Shown here piece by piece: positions 21,547-29,053 of a stretch of DNA of 32,613 nucleotides. The translations under genes were made by a program, and so were the position numbers. Under the pieces are notes generated by a model. It searched no databases. It had not been told where the DNA came from and worked only from the letters and a program-made list of their open reading frames with translations. How positions within the stretch are numbered: position 1 is the stretch's first letter; every line of letters begins with the position of its first letter. The stretch comes from an uncultured Caryophanales bacterium (GTDB taxonomy: Bacteria; Bacillota_I; Bacilli_A; Acholeplasmatales; Anaeroplasmataceae), in contig CAMJFY010000015.1 of NCBI GenBank assembly GCA_946405105.1, forward strand, positions 1-32,613, written 5' to 3'.

Positions 21547-24500
21547 ATGAAAATTAAAAGATTACCTTTCTTATTATTAATGTTTTTTGCGTTGTTTTTA
21601 TTTGCATCATGTGGAAATAAAAAGGATGCAGACGAAAATAAATCAGGTACAATAACTGAAACAATTGATGAGGTTGAGCCTGATGTAGAAGAAAAAGAAA
21701 CTACATATAAGGTATTACATTTCTTAGAAAAGCTAGAAAATAATGAATATAAATGTGATACTGAAGAAGAAATCCCTGCAGTTTCTAATCATCCAACAGA
21801 AGCTGCCCCTAAAACTTATGAAGGATTTACTGCAAAAGAATTTAAACAAAAGAAGATTATGCCTGATGGTTCAACTGAAATAAAAATTTATTATGATAGA
21901 AATAGATTTAATGTTTCTATTAATAATTTTAATAAAGGAACAACTACAGGTGCTGGTACATATAAATATGGACAACAAGTAACTTTAAATGCGACTCCTA
22001 ATACAGGCTTTAATTTCTTAGGCTGGTATGTTAATGATCATCTTGTTGAAAATAATTCAGAATATAAATTTACAATTGCTTTAAGCGATGTATCTGTAGA
22101 AGCTAGATTTGAAGCAAAAGATATAGAATATACAGTTAATCATTATCAACAAAATCTAAATGATGATGGATATACAATTGTAACTAATGATACACGTGTT
22201 TTAAGTGGAAAAGCATTTGATGATACAAACGCCACAGCTAATAATTATGAAGGATTTAGTGTAAAACCATTTGAACAAAAAGAAATAAATCCAAATGGTA
22301 GTACTGTAATAAATATTTATTATGAAAGAGATAAGCATACAATATCTATTTCAAATTCTAATCCATCAATGGGTTCTGCAACTGGTGCTGGTACATATAA
22401 ATATGGACAAACAGTTACATTAACTGCTACCCCTGGTGATGGAGTAGAAATTGATGGTTGGTATGTTAATGGAATAAATATCTGGGATAAATGTGAATAT
22501 TCATTTGTTATGGGCACAGAAAATATTTCATTTAATGTCAAATTTAAATATAAAACAATTAATTATAGTGTAGAACATTATCAACAAAACCTAAATGATG
22601 ACAATTATACAATTGTTTCAAATGATACACAAATTTTAAGTGGTCCAGCTTTCTCACAAACTCAAGCAGAAGCTAATGATTATACAGGATTTAGTGCTAA
22701 AGCATTTGAGCAAAAAGAAATAAATCCTAATGGAGAGACTGTAGTTAAAATTTATTATGAAAGAGATAAGCATTCAGTAGCTATTACAAATTCTAATCCA
22801 GAAATGGGTTCTGCAACTGGTGCTGGTACATATAAATATGGACAAACAGTTACATTAACTGCAACCACTGGTGATGAATATTTAATTGATGGCTGGTATG
22901 TTAATGATGTATCTAAAGGTAATTCAACTGAATATACATTCGTTATGGGAACAAATGATGTTACAGTAGAAATTAGATTTAATTATAAATCTGTAAATTA
23001 TAAGGTAGAACATTATCAAGAAAATGCAAATGATGATGGTTATACAATTGTATCAAAGGATACAGAAACTAAAACTGGAACACCTAACACTTTAACACAG
23101 GCTACAGCTAAATCATATACAGGATTTAATAAGCCAACAAATATTAGTCAAGAGACTATTAATGCTGATGGAACAACTGTAGTAAAAATATATTACAATA
23201 GAATTAAATATCAATTAAATATTTCATATAATGATTCAAAGGCTGGTACAGTTTCTGGTGCTGGTACATATAAATATGGTCAAACAGTAACAATTTCAGC
23301 AACACCTAATGAAGGATATGGATTTGGAGGATGGGCATCTTCATCTACATATGTTAATATAATAGATAGAACAAATCCAAAACAGGTTACAATAACAACT
23401 ACAAATACATATTATGCTAAATTTATATTAAATGCACATGATATTAATCTAAATGTTACTGGAACAAGCACTAACAATGTTTCAATTGTAGGAGAAACAA
23501 GTAATTCTCAAGGATATTATGGTAAAACATATACTGTAGTAGTAAATGATAAAAATATCGTATCAATGAAGCTTAATAGTGGTACTGCAGTATTAACTAA
23601 ATCACTTACTTTTACAATGCCAAATGATGATGTAACAATTTATATTAATGTATCTACATATGTAAGAGAAGATAATGAAATTTATTTTGGATTCTATCCA
23701 CAAACAGAAATTAAATCTAGTACTAATGCAGCATTAGTTGCAGAATTAAATACACTTTGTGGTTCAGCTCGTCCATCAGCTTCAAATCTAAATGGATGGG
23801 TAGATTATAAATATTATATAAGTAGTAGTGTAACATCATATATGTATTATAAGGATGTACAATATAATGGTGATTATTATAGAGCAGTATATTTCACTCA
23901 ATATAGACCATATGTTATTACATTATCATCTACACAAGGTAATTCATTCCAGGATGAAAATGGTTATAATACTAATAATGTTTATTGGTTTAAATTTGAT
24001 CCTATTAAATGGACAATTTTAGAAGAGAATAGCACTCAAGCATTAATTTATGCTGATTTAATCTTAGATGCTAAAGATTATTATTTTGATTCAAATAGTG
24101 GTAAAACAAACCATTATTATAAGGGCTATTTGTTAGGAAATGGATATAGTAATAATTATGAATTATCTACAATAAGAAAATTCTTAGCTAATGATTTTGC
24201 TATAAAATTCTCATCAGATCAAATCGGTTTATTTGTAACAACTACAGTAGATAATTCAGCTGATTCAACTCATTCTGGATCTAATCCATATTATTCTAAT
24301 AATACAAGTGATGAAATATTCTTATTATCACATAGGGAAATTAATACATATTTAAATTCACCTCAACTTAGAACTACTACAGCAACAGATTATGCGAATA
24401 GCCAAGGCTTTAATGGCTTTTATTGGTTGAGATCTCCATATCTTCAATCAGGTAATCATGTTGAGGCTATAACAGCTGCCGGTGAGTTCTCTGCAACATA

Positions 24501-24552
24501 TAACACTCATACACGCTGTGGTGTAAGACCAGCTTGTTGGATTAGATTGTAA
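21547..24552 (+). CDS. Repeat-rich surface lipoprotein with DUF6273-like C terminus
   Basis: A 1001-aa lipoprotein (lipobox FASC, Cys22). Four tandem units of 141-145 aa start near residues 54, 195, 340 and 485. Each has a MucBP-like half (VEHYQQNLNDDxYTIV ... IYYERDKH) and an InlB-like half (TGAGTYKYGQTVTLTATP ... GWYVND ... FVMG). A diverged beta domain lies at about 630-705. The C-terminal 290 residues resemble DUF6273, with YFGFYPQTEI, WFKFDPIKWTILEE, YELSTIRKFLAN and the ending FYWLRSP...GVRPACWIRL. It is probably an adhesin or cell-surface binding protein; no catalytic residues are recognised. Ribosome site GAGTGGGGGA. Confidence 0.82.
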   Translation: MKIKRLPFLLLMFFALFLFASCGNKKDADENKSGTITETIDEVEPDVEEKETTYKVLHFLEKLENNEYKCDTEEEIPAVSNHPTEAAPKTYEGFTAKEFKQKKIMPDGSTEIKIYYDRNRFNVSINNFNKGTTTGAGTYKYGQQVTLNATPNTGFNFLGWYVNDHLVENNSEYKFTIALSDVSVEARFEAKDIEYTVNHYQQNLNDDGYTIVTNDTRVLSGKAFDDTNATANNYEGFSVKPFEQKEINPNGSTVINIYYERDKHTISISNSNPSMGSATGAGTYKYGQTVTLTATPGDGVEIDGWYVNGINIWDKCEYSFVMGTENISFNVKFKYKTINYSVEHYQQNLNDDNYTIVSNDTQILSGPAFSQTQAEANDYTGFSAKAFEQKEINPNGETVVKIYYERDKHSVAITNSNPEMGSATGAGTYKYGQTVTLTATTGDEYLIDGWYVNDVSKGNSTEYTFVMGTNDVTVEIRFNYKSVNYKVEHYQENANDDGYTIVSKDTETKTGTPNTLTQATAKSYTGFNKPTNISQETINADGTTVVKIYYNRIKYQLNISYNDSKAGTVSGAGTYKYGQTVTISATPNEGYGFGGWASSSTYVNIIDRTNPKQVTITTTNTYYAKFILNAHDINLNVTGTSTNNVSIVGETSNSQGYYGKTYTVVVNDKNIVSMKLNSGTAVLTKSLTFTMPNDDVTIYINVSTYVREDNEIYFGFYPQTEIKSSTNAALVAELNTLCGSARPSASNLNGWVDYKYYISSSVTSYMYYKDVQYNGDYYRAVYFTQYRPYVITLSSTQGNSFQDENGYNTNNVYWFKFDPIKWTILEENSTQALIYADLILDAKDYYFDSNSGKTNHYYKGYLLGNGYSNNYELSTIRKFLANDFAIKFSSDQIGLFVTTTVDNSADSTHSGSNPYYSNNTSDEIFLLSHREINTYLNSPQLRTTTATDYANSQGFNGFYWLRSPYLQSGNHVEAITAAGEFSATYNTHTRCGVRPACWIRL
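21706..23434 (+). repeat. Four tandem intragenic repeats of about 435 bp
   Basis: Unit starts are near 21706, 22129, 22564 and 22999. A short DNA core, GGTGCTGGTACATATAAA, is identical in all four units (near 21951, 22386, 22821 and 23260), so recombination between units could change the length of the protein. Confidence 0.8.
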
Positions 24553-24865: not shown

Positions 24866-24900
24866 TCTCACGTTGAAAGTGATACTCTTTTAGTCAAACG
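24866..24900. repeat. Degenerate copy of the short hairpin module (CAC..GTG-TACTCTTTTAG)
   Basis: The segment ...GAAAGTGATACTCTTTTAGTCAAACGA matches 26234-26259 (GAAAGTGTTACTCTTTTAGTTAAACGA). Its left arm is lost here. TTCTCACGTTGA within it recurs near 29090, after the Fic gene. It forms part of the gene-free stretch 24829-25331, which is filled with such repeats. Confidence 0.5.
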
Positions 24901-24933
24901 AGACTAACATAAAACAAGTCTACATGGTAACTA

Positions 24934-25089
24934 TTGAATAATCATAAAAATATGTTATACTATAAGTGTCTTGAGGGACAACTTTAAGTTAAGAAAACGA
25001 AAAGGGATGACGCCAATCATCCCTTTTCTCATTTTAGAGGAAACAACTTTAAGTTAAGATACTATCTATCGATAGCTATTCTTATTAAT
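24934..25089 (+). ncRNA. Candidate structured RNA element, copy A
   Basis: A promoter (TTGAAT 24934-24939, 16-nt spacer, TATACT 24956-24961) precedes a short transcript. Elements in order: hairpin UGUC..GACA (24968-24980); ACAAC plus variable sequence V (TTTAAGTTAAGA, 24983-24994); terminator-like hairpin AAAAGGGATGA/TCATCCCTTTT (25000-25027); TCATTTTAGAGGAA; an exact second copy of ACAAC+V (25043-25059); and hairpin CTATC/GATAG (25062-25075). Copy B at 27492 has the same order, with a different V duplicated at both places. No protein is encoded. The function is unknown. Confidence 0.5.
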
Positions 25090-25231
25090 AATAATGATTA
25101 ATACCATTATCACAATAAGAATTATTAGGTATTCCACCTAATACCTCCTAACTACCCGTTGTTCCCTCCAGGTAGAAGTTTATTCATTCTGTTGTCTCCT
25201 CTTAAAATGAACCATATAAATATGGCATTTT
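25085..25231 (-). ncRNA. Diverged, inverted relative of the RNA element (copy A')
   Basis: Read on the minus strand this shows AAAATG-CCATAT/ATATGG-TTCATTTT (25231-25204), then AAGAGGAGACAAC (about 25204-25192), a hairpin loop TGGAGGGAACAAC closed by CTACC/GGTAG (about 25177-25153), hairpin TATTAGGT/ACCTAATA (25143-25123) and ATTCTTATTG. The order hairpin-TCATTTTA-GAGGARACAAC-hairpin-TTCTTATT matches copies A and B, with stems of different sequence. Direct repeats ATACCATTATCA at 25101-25112 and 25236-25247 bracket it. Confidence 0.35.
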
Positions 25232-25331
25232 AATGATACCATTATCAAGGTATTAATTCAATATATTTTGTAGATTTGTTGATTATTTATATTAAATACA
25301 TTATAATTGATTTATAAGGATGTGATAATAA

Positions 25332-26207
25332 ATGGATAATAAATTTGGTGAAAAAGTAAAAGAAATAAGAAAAAAAGCTGGCTTAAATCAAGATGAATTT
25401 GCAAAAGAATTAGGTTATACATCTAGATCTACTATTAATAAGATAGAAAAAGGCGTAAATGATATGAGTCATGATAAGCTCGAACTATTAATTAGAAAGT
25501 TTGATGTTGAGGTAAATGATCTATTTGATTCTTTAGCTACTTCATCAGGTGGTACAATTATAGACGAAAAAGGTGTAAGAAATATAAAAGTGCCAGACCC
25601 TGATTTTACATACCCTAAAGCTGGTTACTATAATATGAAAAATATAAAACCAACTATTACAAGAAAGAATATAATAGTTGGAGATTATTCATATTATAGT
25701 GGAAAAGATTTCGAATCTAGAGTTACACACCATTATGAATTTTTAGGTGATAAATTAATCATTGGTAAATTTTGTCAAATAGGTAATAATGTAGAATTTA
25801 TTATGAATGGTGCTAACCATCAAATGAATGCAGCTACAACTTTCCCTTTTTATGTGATGGACGGCTGGAAACAAGAAGCACCTAAAATAGATGACTTACC
25901 TTTTAAAGGTGATACAGTAGTAGGTAATGATTGCTGGATTGGACAAAATGTAACTATACTACCTGGAGTTCATATTGGTAATGGAGTAATAATAGGTGCA
26001 AATTCTGTAGTAACTAAAGATTTACCATCATATTCAATATGTTGTGGTAACCCATGTGTAATTAAGAAAATGAGATTTAGTGATGAAATAATTAAAATCT
26101 TAGAAGAATTAAAATGGTGGGATAAAAGTGTTGATGAAATACAAAAAATTATTCCTATAATTACTAAAGCCAATCCAACAAAAGAAGAATTACTTTATTT
26201 ATTATAA
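25332..26207 (+). CDS. Fusion of Xre-type HTH with a Vat/CatB-like acetyltransferase
   Basis: A 291-aa protein. Residues 8-62 are a classic HTH_3 domain (VKEIRKKAGLNQDEFAKELGYTSRSTINKIEKG). From about residue 90 to 270 there is a complete left-handed beta-helix acetyltransferase of the xenobiotic (Vat/CatB) group. It has IGKFCQIGNNVEFIMNGANHQMN, with catalytic His163 in the expected NH motif, then hexapeptide turns VVGNDCWIGQNVTILPGVHIGNGVIIGANSVVTKD and the C-terminal CGNPCVIKK. Stand-alone enzymes of this type are about 210 aa, so both parts are intact. The substrate could be a streptogramin-like drug or a sugar. ATG 25332 follows AAGGATGTGAT. The enzyme may regulate its own gene or sense its substrate. 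Confidence 0.85.
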   Translation: MDNKFGEKVKEIRKKAGLNQDEFAKELGYTSRSTINKIEKGVNDMSHDKLELLIRKFDVEVNDLFDSLATSSGGTIIDEKGVRNIKVPDPDFTYPKAGYYNMKNIKPTITRKNIIVGDYSYYSGKDFESRVTHHYEFLGDKLIIGKFCQIGNNVEFIMNGANHQMNAATTFPFYVMDGWKQEAPKIDDLPFKGDTVVGNDCWIGQNVTILPGVHIGNGVIIGANSVVTKDLPSYSICCGNPCVIKKMRFSDEIIKILEELKWWDKSVDEIQKIIPIITKANPTKEELLYLL

Positions 26208-26289
26208 TCGTTTGACTGAATAAGAAACACTCGAAAGTGTTACTCTTTTAGTTAAACGAAAAGGGATGACGGCTAATCATCCCTTTTTT
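26208..26289 (+). terminator. Compound hairpin and terminator after the fusion gene
   Basis: The outer stem TCGTTTGACT (26208-26217) with AGTTAAACGA (26250-26259) encloses AACACT-CGAA-AGTGTT (26226-26241). Terminator AAAAGGGATGA (26259-26269) / TCATCCCTTTT (26277-26287) follows at once. It lies between convergent genes and also serves the minus strand. The core matches that in RNA elements A and B. Confidence 0.8.
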
Positions 26290-27491: not shown

Positions 27492-27650
27492 TTGAATTAT
27501 CATAAAAATATGTTATATTATAAGTGTCTTAAGAGACAACGGAATTATTTGGTAAAACGAAAAGGGATGACTGCAATCATCCCTTTTCTCATTTTAGAAG
27601 AAACAACGGAAAAATTATTTGTATGCTATCTAACGATAGTTTTTCTTATT
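27492..27650 (+). ncRNA. Candidate structured RNA element, copy B
   Basis: Promoter TTGAAT (27492-27497), 16-nt spacer, TATATT (27514-27519). Then: hairpin TGTCT-TAAG-AGACA (about 27525-27538); ACAAC+V, where V is GGAATTATTTGGTA (27541-27554); hairpin AAAAGGGATGA/TCATCCCTTTT (27560-27587); TCATTTTAGAAGAA; a second ACAAC+V (GGAAAAATTATTTGTA, 27608-27623); and hairpin CTATC/GATAG with a following T5 (27626-27644). Same order and spacing as copy A, but V is different. It sits between two gene remnants. An 84-codon open frame across it is not a real gene. Confidence 0.5.
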
Positions 27651-27746
27651 GATAAAATGGCAAAGCTAGGTGCTGATTTAATACAGGGATATTATTATGA
27701 TAAGCCATTAGAAAAAGAAGAATTTAGAAATAAATATATTGAATAA
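27651..27746 (+). pseudogene. C-terminal remnant of an EAL-domain phosphodiesterase gene
   Basis: The frame reads DKMAKLGADLIQGYYYDKPL followed by EKEEFRNKYIE and a stop. This is the standard end of EAL (cyclic-di-GMP phosphodiesterase) domains, whose QGYY.xKPL motif is highly conserved. No catalytic part of the domain is present upstream; RNA element B abuts it. The fragment is not expressed as a functional enzyme. Confidence 0.65.
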
Positions 27747-27927: not shown

Positions 27928-27946
27928 AAGATTGGGATGTGATACA

Positions 27947-29053
27947 ATGAAATTATCATTTAAATACACAAATAATTTAGTTGATTCATTACTGAAAATT
28001 GAAAAATATAAGACTGCATTAGATTATTTGTTATTACCTACTAGAGAAAAACAAAAATTAATGTATGAGGCTAAATTAAAGAAAACACATTTTTCAACAA
28101 GTATAGAAGGTAATGTTTTATCATACAATCAAGTTGAAAGAGTTATAAATGAAAAAAAAGATATTAGGAAATTAACAGCAGAGCAAGAAGTAAAGAATTA
28201 TTGGGATGCATTAACTTTTCTTGAAGAAGAAAATTCTAAGAATACTAGAATTGATAAAGAGTTTATATTGAAATTACATGATATAATTCAAAAGAATGGT
28301 AAGCTAACTAGAATACCGTTTAGGGGACAAACTGCTCCTGGTGTTTTATTTGCTGTTTATGATTCTGTGACAAAGCAACCAGAATATATACCACCAGAAT
28401 GGGTTGATATTGATCCTTTAATTGATGAATTAATTATTTGGTATGATAATAATCAAAATCTACCAGCACCAATTTTATCTGCAATAATGCATTATGCACT
28501 TGTAACAATTCATCCGTTTAATGATGGTAATGGAAGAACATCAAGAGCATTAGCTACATATGTTTTGATGCAACATAATTATGATTTTAAAGGGTTTAAT
28601 TCGTTTGAAGAATATTATATGTCTGATTTAAATGGATATTATGAGTCAATTCAAATGGGACTTCCTGCGTTATTTTATTCCGGAAGAGAAAATCCACCAC
28701 ATCTAGAAATATGGATTGAGTATTTTTGTAAAATAATGTCTCTTAATGCGGAAAAAATATATGACCAAGCACTTGAGGCATCAAAGAAAGAATCAAATGA
28801 ATTGTTAAAAGGATTAAATAAGAAAGATTTAACCTTGTTAAGATATTGTCTTGAAAATGGAATTAAGGTTATCAAAAATAAAGAAGTTGCTGATTTGTTT
28901 GGTGTTACGCCAAGGGCAATATCTAAGTGGATGAATGAATGGGTTGAAAAAGGAATATTAGTTCCTAACTCAGGAGTAGAAAGAATCACTAGTTATACTT
29001 TAGCTTTTAAGTACGAAAAACTAAAAGTATCGGATTTGGGTTTCACAAATTAA
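27947..29053 (+). CDS. fic: Fic-family protein adenylyltransferase with winged-helix domain
   Basis: A 368-aa class II Fic protein that transfers AMP (or similar) from a nucleotide to target proteins. The catalytic motif is complete: HPFNDGNGRTSR with His189. The N-terminal inhibitory motif [S/T]xxxE[G/N] is present as STSIEG with Glu54, so the enzyme can self-inhibit and needs no separate antitoxin. The C-terminal part (about 290-345; LLRYCLENGIKVIKNKEVADLFGVTPRAISKWMNEWVEKGIL) is a winged-helix DNA-binding domain. The start is ATG 27947 with GGGATGTGAT; the earlier TTG-type start lies inside the promoter. Probably autoregulated through the GGAAC array. Confidence 0.92.
   Translation: MKLSFKYTNNLVDSLLKIEKYKTALDYLLLPTREKQKLMYEAKLKKTHFSTSIEGNVLSYNQVERVINEKKDIRKLTAEQEVKNYWDALTFLEEENSKNTRIDKEFILKLHDIIQKNGKLTRIPFRGQTAPGVLFAVYDSVTKQPEYIPPEWVDIDPLIDELIIWYDNNQNLPAPILSAIMHYALVTIHPFNDGNGRTSRALATYVLMQHNYDFKGFNSFEEYYMSDLNGYYESIQMGLPALFYSGRENPPHLEIWIEYFCKIMSLNAEKIYDQALEASKKESNELLKGLNKKDLTLLRYCLENGIKVIKNKEVADLFGVTPRAISKWMNEWVEKGILVPNSGVERITSYTLAFKYEKLKVSDLGFTN

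What the first reader, a model, noticed from the sequence alone, without database searches (positions are those of the whole stretch)
24934..25089. Candidate new structured RNA element with an internally duplicated, copy-specific sequence
Copies A (24934-25089) and B (27492-27650) share a promoter, three hairpins and the ACAAC motif in the same order. In each copy a 12-16 nt sequence V follows ACAAC at two places about 65 bp apart. The two V copies inside one element are the same or nearly so (A: TTTAAGTTAAGA twice, exact; B: GGAATTATTTG / GGAAAAATTATTTG), yet V differs completely between elements. This pattern, fixed scaffold plus swapped, duplicated insert, is what a guide-like or target-matched RNA would show. 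It is not an ordinary terminator or a transposon end. The function is unknown; the guide idea is speculation.
Basis: partly seen in the sequence, partly recalled or inferred. Interest (0 to 1): 0.85.

Follow-up and report, generated by a model that had tools for sequence, protein, structure and literature searches.

The report
New RNA-controlled toxin-antitoxin gene family
The repeated element looks like the antidote half of a small poison-and-antidote gene pair in a gut bacterium: an antisense RNA recognises the message for a tiny membrane peptide through a short password that is written twice in each copy and differs between copies.

Summary
Copy A is half of a predicted type I toxin-antitoxin locus. 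Read on the minus strand, the locus has a promoter, a leader ORF and a 23-residue hydrophobic ORF (MEYLIILIVIMVLIIIINKNSYR, 25066-25137). The plus-strand RNA (~24967-25035) is the predicted antitoxin, and the middle hairpin is a bidirectional terminator. V1 and V2 flank it, so V1 is antisense to V2 as transcribed in the toxin mRNA. This is the layout of par of pAD1, with a toxin that matches no family searched.

In 44 loci from relatives, V1/V2 match best within the locus in 37. Paralogues in one genome are predicted orthogonal in 52 of 54 comparisons, but two later-found duplicate pairs share V. The ORF evolves as coding DNA, and its start codon lies in a hairpin with compensatory changes. 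The mRNA leader can pair with the V2 region, so leader and antitoxin would compete for one site. Copy B is a decayed locus with an intact antitoxin part.

The guide idea is partly right: V is an antisense recognition sequence, but its evident target is the toxin mRNA of its own locus. Expression and toxicity are untested.

The parts
24934..24961 (+). Antitoxin promoter (TTGAAT, 16 nt, TATACT, TG before the -10)
   Evidence: a promoter-like site scoring 9 or more lies at the matching place in 39 of 40 loci against 33% of shuffles
24967..25035 (+). Predicted antitoxin RNA, about 69 nt (ends inferred)
   Evidence: Promoter and terminator; fold z-score -4.74 for 24966-25034; no transcript data
24983..24994 (+). 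V1, first copy of the direct repeat (antitoxin recognition arm)
24999..25028 (.). Bidirectional intrinsic terminator shared by both RNAs
   Evidence: Terminator-like on both strands, 2 found against 0.1 expected
25048..25059 (-). V2, second copy; its complement lies in the toxin mRNA 3' UTR
24993..25227 (-). Predicted toxin mRNA (ends inferred), folding with a 5'-3' closing helix
   Evidence: Fold of 24992-25227, z-score -9.96
25066..25137 (-). Toxin ORF, GTG start, 23 aa: MEYLIILIVIMVLIIIINKNSYR
25124..25142 (-). Hairpin that holds the toxin start codon
   Evidence: Compensatory changes over related loci; absent in a narrower alignment
25152..25187 (-). Leader ORF with Shine-Dalgarno: MNKLLPGGNNG
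   Evidence: A leader ORF in 13 of 14 loci
25233..25261 (-). Toxin promoter (TTGAAT, 17 nt, TATCAT, TG before the -10)
   Evidence: 35 of 39 loci score 9 or more against 36% of shuffles, one of the 39 rows being an artefact
27492..27595 (+). Copy B: antitoxin promoter, V1 (27541-27552) and terminator (27560-27587)
27608..27622 (-). Copy B: V2
27630..27653 (-). Copy B: last seven codons and stop of the toxin ORF; the rest is gone

Best explanation
Copy A belongs to a chromosomal type I toxin-antitoxin locus. Two promoters face each other. The minus-strand RNA carries a leader ORF and then a 23-aa membrane peptide (the toxin); the plus-strand RNA is an antisense antitoxin of about 69 nt; both stop at one bidirectional terminator. 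V stands on each side of the terminator, so the antitoxin's V1 is complementary to V2 as read in the toxin mRNA 3' UTR. V1 and V2 are therefore kept alike within a locus, while the sequence itself is free to drift, so most loci carry their own password and most paralogues should not cross-react. Inferred steps: the full-length toxin mRNA is locked by pairing of its leader to the V2 region; its start codon is hidden in a hairpin that a ribosome finishing the leader ORF would melt; the antitoxin pairs through the complementary terminators and V1:V2' and the duplex is degraded; when antitoxin supply stops, surviving mRNA is activated and the peptide damages the membrane. Shown by sequence: layout, V matching, coding constraint, start hairpin. 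Not shown: transcription, toxicity, the lock, degradation.
For: Convergent promoter-like sites and a two-way terminator, recurring over the loci. Toxin ORF: differences 371/127/60 at third/first/second codon positions over 12 loci, no stops in frame; 31 of 33 further model hits have a short hydrophobic ORF; 41 distinct peptides, M1 and L4 in all, K/R near the end in 39. V1/V2: 13 of 13 and 37 of 44 best with own partner; no permutation but the true one (of 40320) and none of 100000 as good. Predicted antitoxin-arm:3'UTR duplex -24.9 own, -10.3 other families. Same-genome paralogues: own pairing stronger in 52 of 54 comparisons. Start hairpin covariation: 210 of 259 cells paired, shuffles at most 196; covariation score above 500 of 500 shuffles. 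Leader ORF in 13 of 14 loci.
Against: No RNA or toxicity data. 7 of 44 loci fail the strict V test. In the held-out set only 3 of 9 scored loci beat every other locus outright, and two pairs of near-identical paralogues (G007:C39/C83, G047:C7 x2) share V and would cross-react. dN exceeds dS slightly in 1 of 9 pairs printed. The lock is only moderately specific: own pairing beats all 6 shuffles in 25 of 40 loci and all 6 swaps in 17 of 40, and the start hairpin dominates the predicted fold in 26 of 40. The antitoxin imitates the leader and would displace it from V2', which by itself would open the lock.
Confidence: 0.9

Rival explanations
1. A trans-acting guide-like or riboregulatory RNA: V targets sequences elsewhere (phage, plasmid or mRNA) and is doubled to give two binding arms.
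For: V sits between two predicted hairpins or in a hairpin arm of a short RNA with its own promoter; V differs between most copies. Orphan antitoxins exist whose V fits another locus: B fits the toxin of G008 (-26.8) and not A (-11.4).
Against: The second V copy follows a conserved coding ORF on the other strand, and its complement is in that ORF's mRNA, which explains the doubling without a distant target. No nuclease or effector gene was seen beside the loci read. I did not search V against phages or whole genomes for other targets.
Confidence: 0.05
2. A true member of the Fst/par family with a much diverged toxin.
For: Convergent promoters, shared two-way terminator, direct repeats transcribed in opposite directions and variable between loci, small hydrophobic toxin with GUG start: as described for par of pAD1 (PMC7472228, passages).
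Against: 0 of 41 toxins has PxxxG/C; no Fst model among the matches and no PDB chain matched the profile at E up to 10. The repeat in the toxin RNA lies after the ORF, whereas in par the repeats act at the Fst start site.
Confidence: 0.1
3. A cis-acting attenuator leader of the downstream acetyltransferase gene (antibiotic-sensing leader RNA).
For: The locus lies directly upstream of the HTH-acetyltransferase gene in 8 of 10 gene starts read, and the plus RNA has a terminator.
Against: The gene has its own promoter-like site at 25279-25307. Many loci have no such gene next to them, for example RGIG6760 and G021. The plus-strand ORF is not conserved: reading frames end differently in each locus.
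Confidence: 0.03
4. Doubling produced by insertion (target-site duplication) or a degraded mobile-element end with no RNA role.
For: B is joined to unrelated sequence, and inverted-repeat-like stretches flank A.
Against: Scaffold is conserved on both sides of each V in all of the close loci aligned, V recurs with independent sequences in several genera, and the ORF is under coding constraint.
Confidence: 0.01

Closest known systems
par of plasmid pAD1 (RNA I/Fst and RNA II) and chromosomal par-like loci
   Same: Convergent RNAs, bidirectional terminator, direct repeats (DRa/DRb) on both sides that vary between loci and are presumed to prevent cross-talk, short hydrophobic toxin with GUG start (PMC7472228, passages).
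   Different: Unrelated toxin without PxxxG; the repeat copy in the toxin RNA lies in the 3' UTR instead of at the toxin start; a leader ORF precedes the toxin; the leader is complementary to the repeat region.
hok/mok/Sok of plasmid R1
   Same: A leader ORF before the toxin (mok), whose translation is required for hok (PMC4147584, passages).
   Different: Here the dependence is only inferred; the antitoxin is antisense to the 3' UTR and terminator and resembles the leader, whereas Sok is complementary to the mok region.
aapA/IsoA of Helicobacter pylori
   Same: Full-length toxin mRNA with predicted 5'-3' long-distance pairing that covers a Shine-Dalgarno; start region in local hairpins (PMC6733600, passages).
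   Different: Convergent layout with shared terminator and direct repeats; leader ORF; different toxin.
txpA/ratA of Bacillus subtilis
   Same: Convergent RNAs that meet at their 3' ends; the antitoxin acts at the 3' end and promotes RNase III decay (PMC4147584, passages).
   Different: RatA/txpA overlap by about 75 nt of plain antisense; here recognition is by a separate repeat beyond the terminator, with a shorter toxin.

Membership tests
[quoted passage not shown]
Type I toxin-antitoxin system | Antisense RNA gene with complementarity to the toxin mRNA | tested here: met
   By sequence and predicted duplexes only
Type I toxin-antitoxin system | Both RNAs are made; the peptide is toxic; the RNA protects | not testable with these tools
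   Needs RNA-seq and expression tests
par/Fst family | Convergent promoters and bidirectional terminator | tested here: met
par/Fst family | Direct repeats transcribed in opposite directions by the two RNAs | tested here: met
par/Fst family | Repeats positioned over the toxin translation start | tested here: not met
   V2 follows the toxin stop codon
par/Fst family | Toxin with PxxxG(C) motif or an Fst/Ldr profile match | tested here: not met
   0 of 41 peptides with the motif; no Fst model among matches
hok/mok-like control | Toxin translation depends on a leader ORF | tested here: inconclusive
   Leader ORF present in 13 of 14 loci, stop 0-22 nt before the toxin start; dependence not testable here
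Rfam RNA families | Match at a family's gathering score | tested here: not met
   0 matches at gathering score; 14 matches at E up to 10, all below gathering, best E 0.012
CRISPR-like or transposon guide RNA | Associated effector or nuclease gene and distant V-matched targets | not tested
   No such gene seen in the loci read; V was not searched against phages or genomes

The most novel reading that the evidence does not exclude
A three-part RNA code: the toxin mRNA leader, the antitoxin arm and the shared 3' target V2' co-evolve, the antitoxin being a mimic of the mRNA's own leader. Antitoxin and leader would compete for V2' at similar predicted energy (A: -29.6 and -29.7), so the antitoxin would act by strand displacement on a locked mRNA; I did not meet this mode in the passages I read on type I systems. 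Most loci have their own code, with up to six mutually orthogonal loci in one genome (G154), and new codes arise after duplication, passing through orphan and tandem antitoxins.
Probability: 0.35. Interest if true: 0.72.

Novelty: new variant of a known kind. Interest (0 to 1): 0.6.

Why it matters
It adds an apparently undescribed family of type I toxin-antitoxin loci in Acholeplasmatales-like bacteria (named relatives come from sheep rumen and goat reticulum), found only within the window's order in the genomes sampled. With dozens of natural loci whose most freely varying part is the recognition repeat, it makes a general question testable: how can an antisense RNA and its target change specificity together without killing the cell? 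Orphan, tandem and duplicate copies (B, G018, G002:C97, G007:C39/C83) look like steps in that process. It also shows how reading one strand can hide a two-strand gene.

Tried and rejected
Rfam, Pfam, NCBIfam, PHROGs and PDB gave no convincing match for the RNA or the peptides. Best E-values: Rfam 0.012 below gathering score; Pfam 0.0078; NCBIfam 0.0013; PHROGs 0.0087 (4 peptides given); PDB none up to 10. The commonest weak Pfam hit was YxzE (13 of 39 peptides, best E 0.016); Ibs_toxin matched 1 of 39 at E 0.12. I did not pursue them, as hydrophobic composition alone can give them. Phages and plasmids: no blastn match of 24930-25260; viral contigs: none for one pattern. Plus-strand reading frames across the element were rejected as not conserved. 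Target-site duplication was rejected because the flanks of each V are conserved scaffold. An integron-like reading of the flanking inverted repeats was not pursued beyond. The start-hairpin covariation failed in the first, narrow alignment (0 pairs with two-sided change) and passed with the broad one, where two of the five measures (pairs with a change on both sides, 188/500; further pair types, 451/500) were not exceptional.

Rows dropped before counts. From the 13-locus test: G005 and G009 (contig ends), G003 (toxin ORF cut), G014c (no matching terminator and V); for G014a, a rearranged locus, only the first 35 nt of the 3' UTR were used. Of 33 further hits, G045:C8 and G014:C11 (no hydrophobic ORF called by my script) before the 44-locus test. 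G149 before the 41-peptide count. G014a, G149, G028:C26 and G042 before the folding and promoter tests; one toxin-promoter row (G152) is an artefact of a contig end. G149, G028:C26 and G042. V clusters are chained by single linkage, one holding 18 loci, so between-cluster tests leave out many pairs; the V families were assigned by eye. In one search, 1 of 10 loci was not scored (its toxin ORF did not fit my start pattern) and one ORF was miscalled.

Full report
What the finding is. All of that is in the sequence. The exact repeat in A is 17 nt long including ACAAC; 12 of 2000 letter shuffles of the surrounding 221 bases held an exact repeat of 12 nt or more.

First relatives. A search of 40 related genomes with copy B found matches in 12 (some are only fragments), and a pattern scan of named genome contigs found three: Bacillales bacterium UBA7004 and two Acholeplasmatales MAGs, from sheep rumen and goat reticulum.

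The other strand. In that extra stretch the minus strand reads promoter, 5' hairpin, Shine-Dalgarno, a short ORF, a second Shine-Dalgarno (AGGAGG), GTG and a 23-codon hydrophobic ORF that stops just before V2, followed by the terminator hairpin. The scan finds the terminator on both strands (2 found, 0.1 expected) and, among 8 promoter-like sites (3.1 expected), a pair that face each other at 24934-24961 (+) and 25261-25233 (-), both with TG before the second hexamer. This is a convergent two-RNA locus.

The ORF is coding. Over 12 loci, pairwise differences fall 371 at third, 127 at first and 60 at second codon positions; in frame there are no stops, while the other two forward frames meet stops. 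Of nine pairs printed, dN is below dS in eight; A/G018 is the exception, 0.100 against 0.095. A covariance model of the start region found 50 matches in 31 of 160 genomes of the order, 5 of 28 genera. Of the 33 matches not already in hand, 31 have a short hydrophobic ORF at the expected place. The 41 distinct peptides (the incomplete G149 left out) all have M1 and L4, 33 have E2, 36 have Y3, 39 have K or R in the last six residues, and none has the PxxxG(C) motif of Fst.

V is the antitoxin's password. V1 lies in the plus-strand RNA before the terminator and V2 after it, so the minus-strand mRNA contains the complement of V2. For 13 loci of the genus, the own V1/V2 match beats all matches to other V families in 13 of 13, and of 40320 assignments among eight family representatives only the true one scores as high. 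Predicted duplexes of the antitoxin arm with the toxin 3' UTR average -24.9 kcal/mol own and -10.3 with other families. With 44 loci the mean own score is 25.5 against 11.8; 37 of 44 are best in row and column; none of 100000 permutations of 19 cluster representatives reaches the observed sum. Of the seven that fail, G018, G148 x2 and G150:C13 have short exact matches of 8-9 nt, and in G028:C26, G042 and G149 my script found no matching second half.

Held-out loci. Ten loci found later with a second model of the toxin start only were read. Nine could be scored; they score 16 to 31 (eight at 20 or more) where pairings with other loci average 11.6 to 13.2. Four of the nine repeats are only 8-10 nt, one toxin ORF was miscalled, and only three of nine beat every one of the 44 other loci outright. 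Two pairs, G007:C39 with C83 and the two G047:C7 loci, are near-identical paralogues in one genome that share V.

Paralogues. In 11 genomes with several loci (27 loci, three others left out), the own pairing is stronger than pairing with a paralogue in 52 of 54 comparisons; the exceptions are G148:C61 and G150:C13, and G014b, G041a and G148:C293 are near-ties. The shared-V pairs are not in that count. I read this as drift apart after duplication.

Copy B and other odd copies. B keeps promoter, V1, terminator and V2, but the toxin ORF is cut to its last seven codons and joined to other sequence. Its antitoxin would pair with the G008/UBA7004 toxin (-26.8) and not with A's (-11.4). G018 has an extra antitoxin copy upstream whose V1 fits the resident V2 better (-28.2) than the resident V1 does (-19.4). 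G002:C97 is a lone antitoxin with the V1 of the complete G002:C74 locus. The tandem antitoxin at G007:C65 fits no toxin in the set well (best -16.7).

Translation control. The toxin start codon lies in a hairpin formed with codons 3-5. Across 37 distinct sequences the start base and the third base of codon 3 change together (A with U 18, G with C 12, other combinations 7); 210 of 259 cells are paired against at most 196 in 2000 shuffles, and with 30 rows the covariation score exceeds 500 of 500 shuffles. An earlier 12-row alignment, dominated by close relatives, showed none. In whole-mRNA folds the hairpin is likely in 26 of 40 loci. In 13 of 14 loci a leader ORF with a Shine-Dalgarno sequence ends 0-22 nt before the toxin start, so a ribosome leaving it could melt the hairpin, as translation of mok is required for hok (PMC4147584, passages).

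The lock. The A toxin RNA folds with z-score -9.96 and a closing 5'-3' helix between the leader and the V2 region. Leader and V2' match better within loci than between: 2 of 40320 permutations as good, though only 3 of 13 loci beat every other family, and in the 44-locus set 0 of 44 are best in row and column although no permutation of 100000 reaches the sum. All 40 loci folded show 16 or more expected leader-3'UTR pairs, but controls temper this: own 21.1, swapped 3' UTR 15.9, shuffled 11.3; own beats all 6 shuffles in 25 of 40 and all 6 swaps in 17 of 40. The reason I infer is that a Shine-Dalgarno/anti-Shine-Dalgarno core is shared by the loci. A comparable lock is described for aapA (PMC6733600, passages), and a review in another paper's introduction calls such locking, with processing before translation, usual for type I systems of Gram-negatives (PMC11228461, outline page with abstract and start of the introduction).

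How it most likely works. Both RNAs are made continuously; the mRNA is born locked; the antitoxin pairs through the complementary terminators and V1:V2'; the duplex is destroyed. Loss of the locus stops antitoxin supply and the remaining mRNA yields the membrane peptide. Layout, V matching, coding constraint and the start hairpin are shown by sequence; everything about expression, toxicity and decay is inferred. One point I could not settle: the antitoxin imitates the leader and competes with it for V2' (A: -29.6 against -29.7), so binding alone would open the lock.

Comparison. The layout is that of par of pAD1: convergent RNAs, shared terminator, direct repeats that vary between loci and are presumed to prevent cross-talk (PMC7472228, passages). 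By the tests made it is not a member of the Fst family: no PxxxG, no Fst model among the matches, repeat after the ORF instead of at its start. txpA/ratA resembles it in 3'-end contact. Type I systems were said in 2025 to be known from Proteobacteria, Firmicutes and Tenericutes, with one then reported in a cyanobacterium (PMC12390103, passages). Library searches for type I toxin-antitoxin with Acholeplasma, Mollicutes or Tenericutes listed 1, 3 and 2 papers, none of which by title or start of abstract describes this family; the T1TAdb paper is not held, so an earlier listing there is not excluded.

Range. With the second model, 13 of 395 genomes of the class (2 of 192 genera) and 8 of 392 of the phylum (2 of 154 genera) match, all of them in the window's own taxonomic family; these are samples, and the stricter filters used there lose weak matches. 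No match in phages, plasmids or, for one pattern, viral contigs.

The neighbour. The gene after A (25332-26207) is an HTH domain fused to a Vat-like acetyltransferase (HTH_3 and Hexapep above cut-off; Vat family model 268 bits, below its cut-off of 300). The toxin-antitoxin locus lies directly upstream, transcribed away from it on the toxin side, in 8 of 10 gene starts read (G000, G015, G009 cut by the contig end, G007, G040, G041, G018, G008), and was not seen in the 223-230 nt before the start in G013:C151 and G001. Other loci of the family have no such neighbour, so the pair is a frequent linkage, not part of the system.

Noticed in passing
window 25332-26207: HTH domain fused to a Vat-like streptogramin acetyltransferase (268 bits, below the family cut-off of 300), found next to the toxin-antitoxin locus in 8 of 10 gene starts read in the genus: a resistance-like gene linked to an addiction-type module.
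   Followed up: partly
window 24879-24901 and 26209-26259: Inverted-repeat-like stretches (…TTTTAGTCAAACGA / TCGTTTGACTGAATAAGAAACACT…) bracket the toxin-antitoxin locus plus acetyltransferase gene; the left stretch recurs before the locus in G008, G015 and G041 (5 places in 4 of 27 genomes), and a similar right end follows the gene in G015. Possibly the ends of a mobile cassette.
   Followed up: partly
window 26253-26288: A third copy of the terminator scaffold (AAACGAAAAGGGATGA..TCATCCC) after the acetyltransferase gene, without V or ORF.
   Followed up: no
window 27648-27746: The sequence joined to decayed copy B reads KMAKLGADLIQGYYYDKPLEKEEF, which from memory resembles the end of EAL-domain proteins; a Pfam scan of the piece found nothing.
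   Followed up: partly
L015 and L038 (G007:C65:2275-2705): A tandem second antitoxin whose V fits no toxin of the set well (best predicted duplex -16.7, own-locus -13.1).
   Followed up: partly
L098 (G045:C8): A distant relative with V repeats and an open hydrophobic frame that seems to begin at GTA instead of a normal start codon (read by eye).
   Followed up: no
L035 (G014:C13): A rearranged locus: the V2 region is followed at once by an antitoxin-promoter-like stretch, and the terminator with V1 lies about 180 nt downstream.
   Followed up: no
window 21547-24552 and 27941-29050: Neighbouring genes: a large protein with InlB-type B repeats and DUF6273, and a Fic family protein.
   Followed up: no
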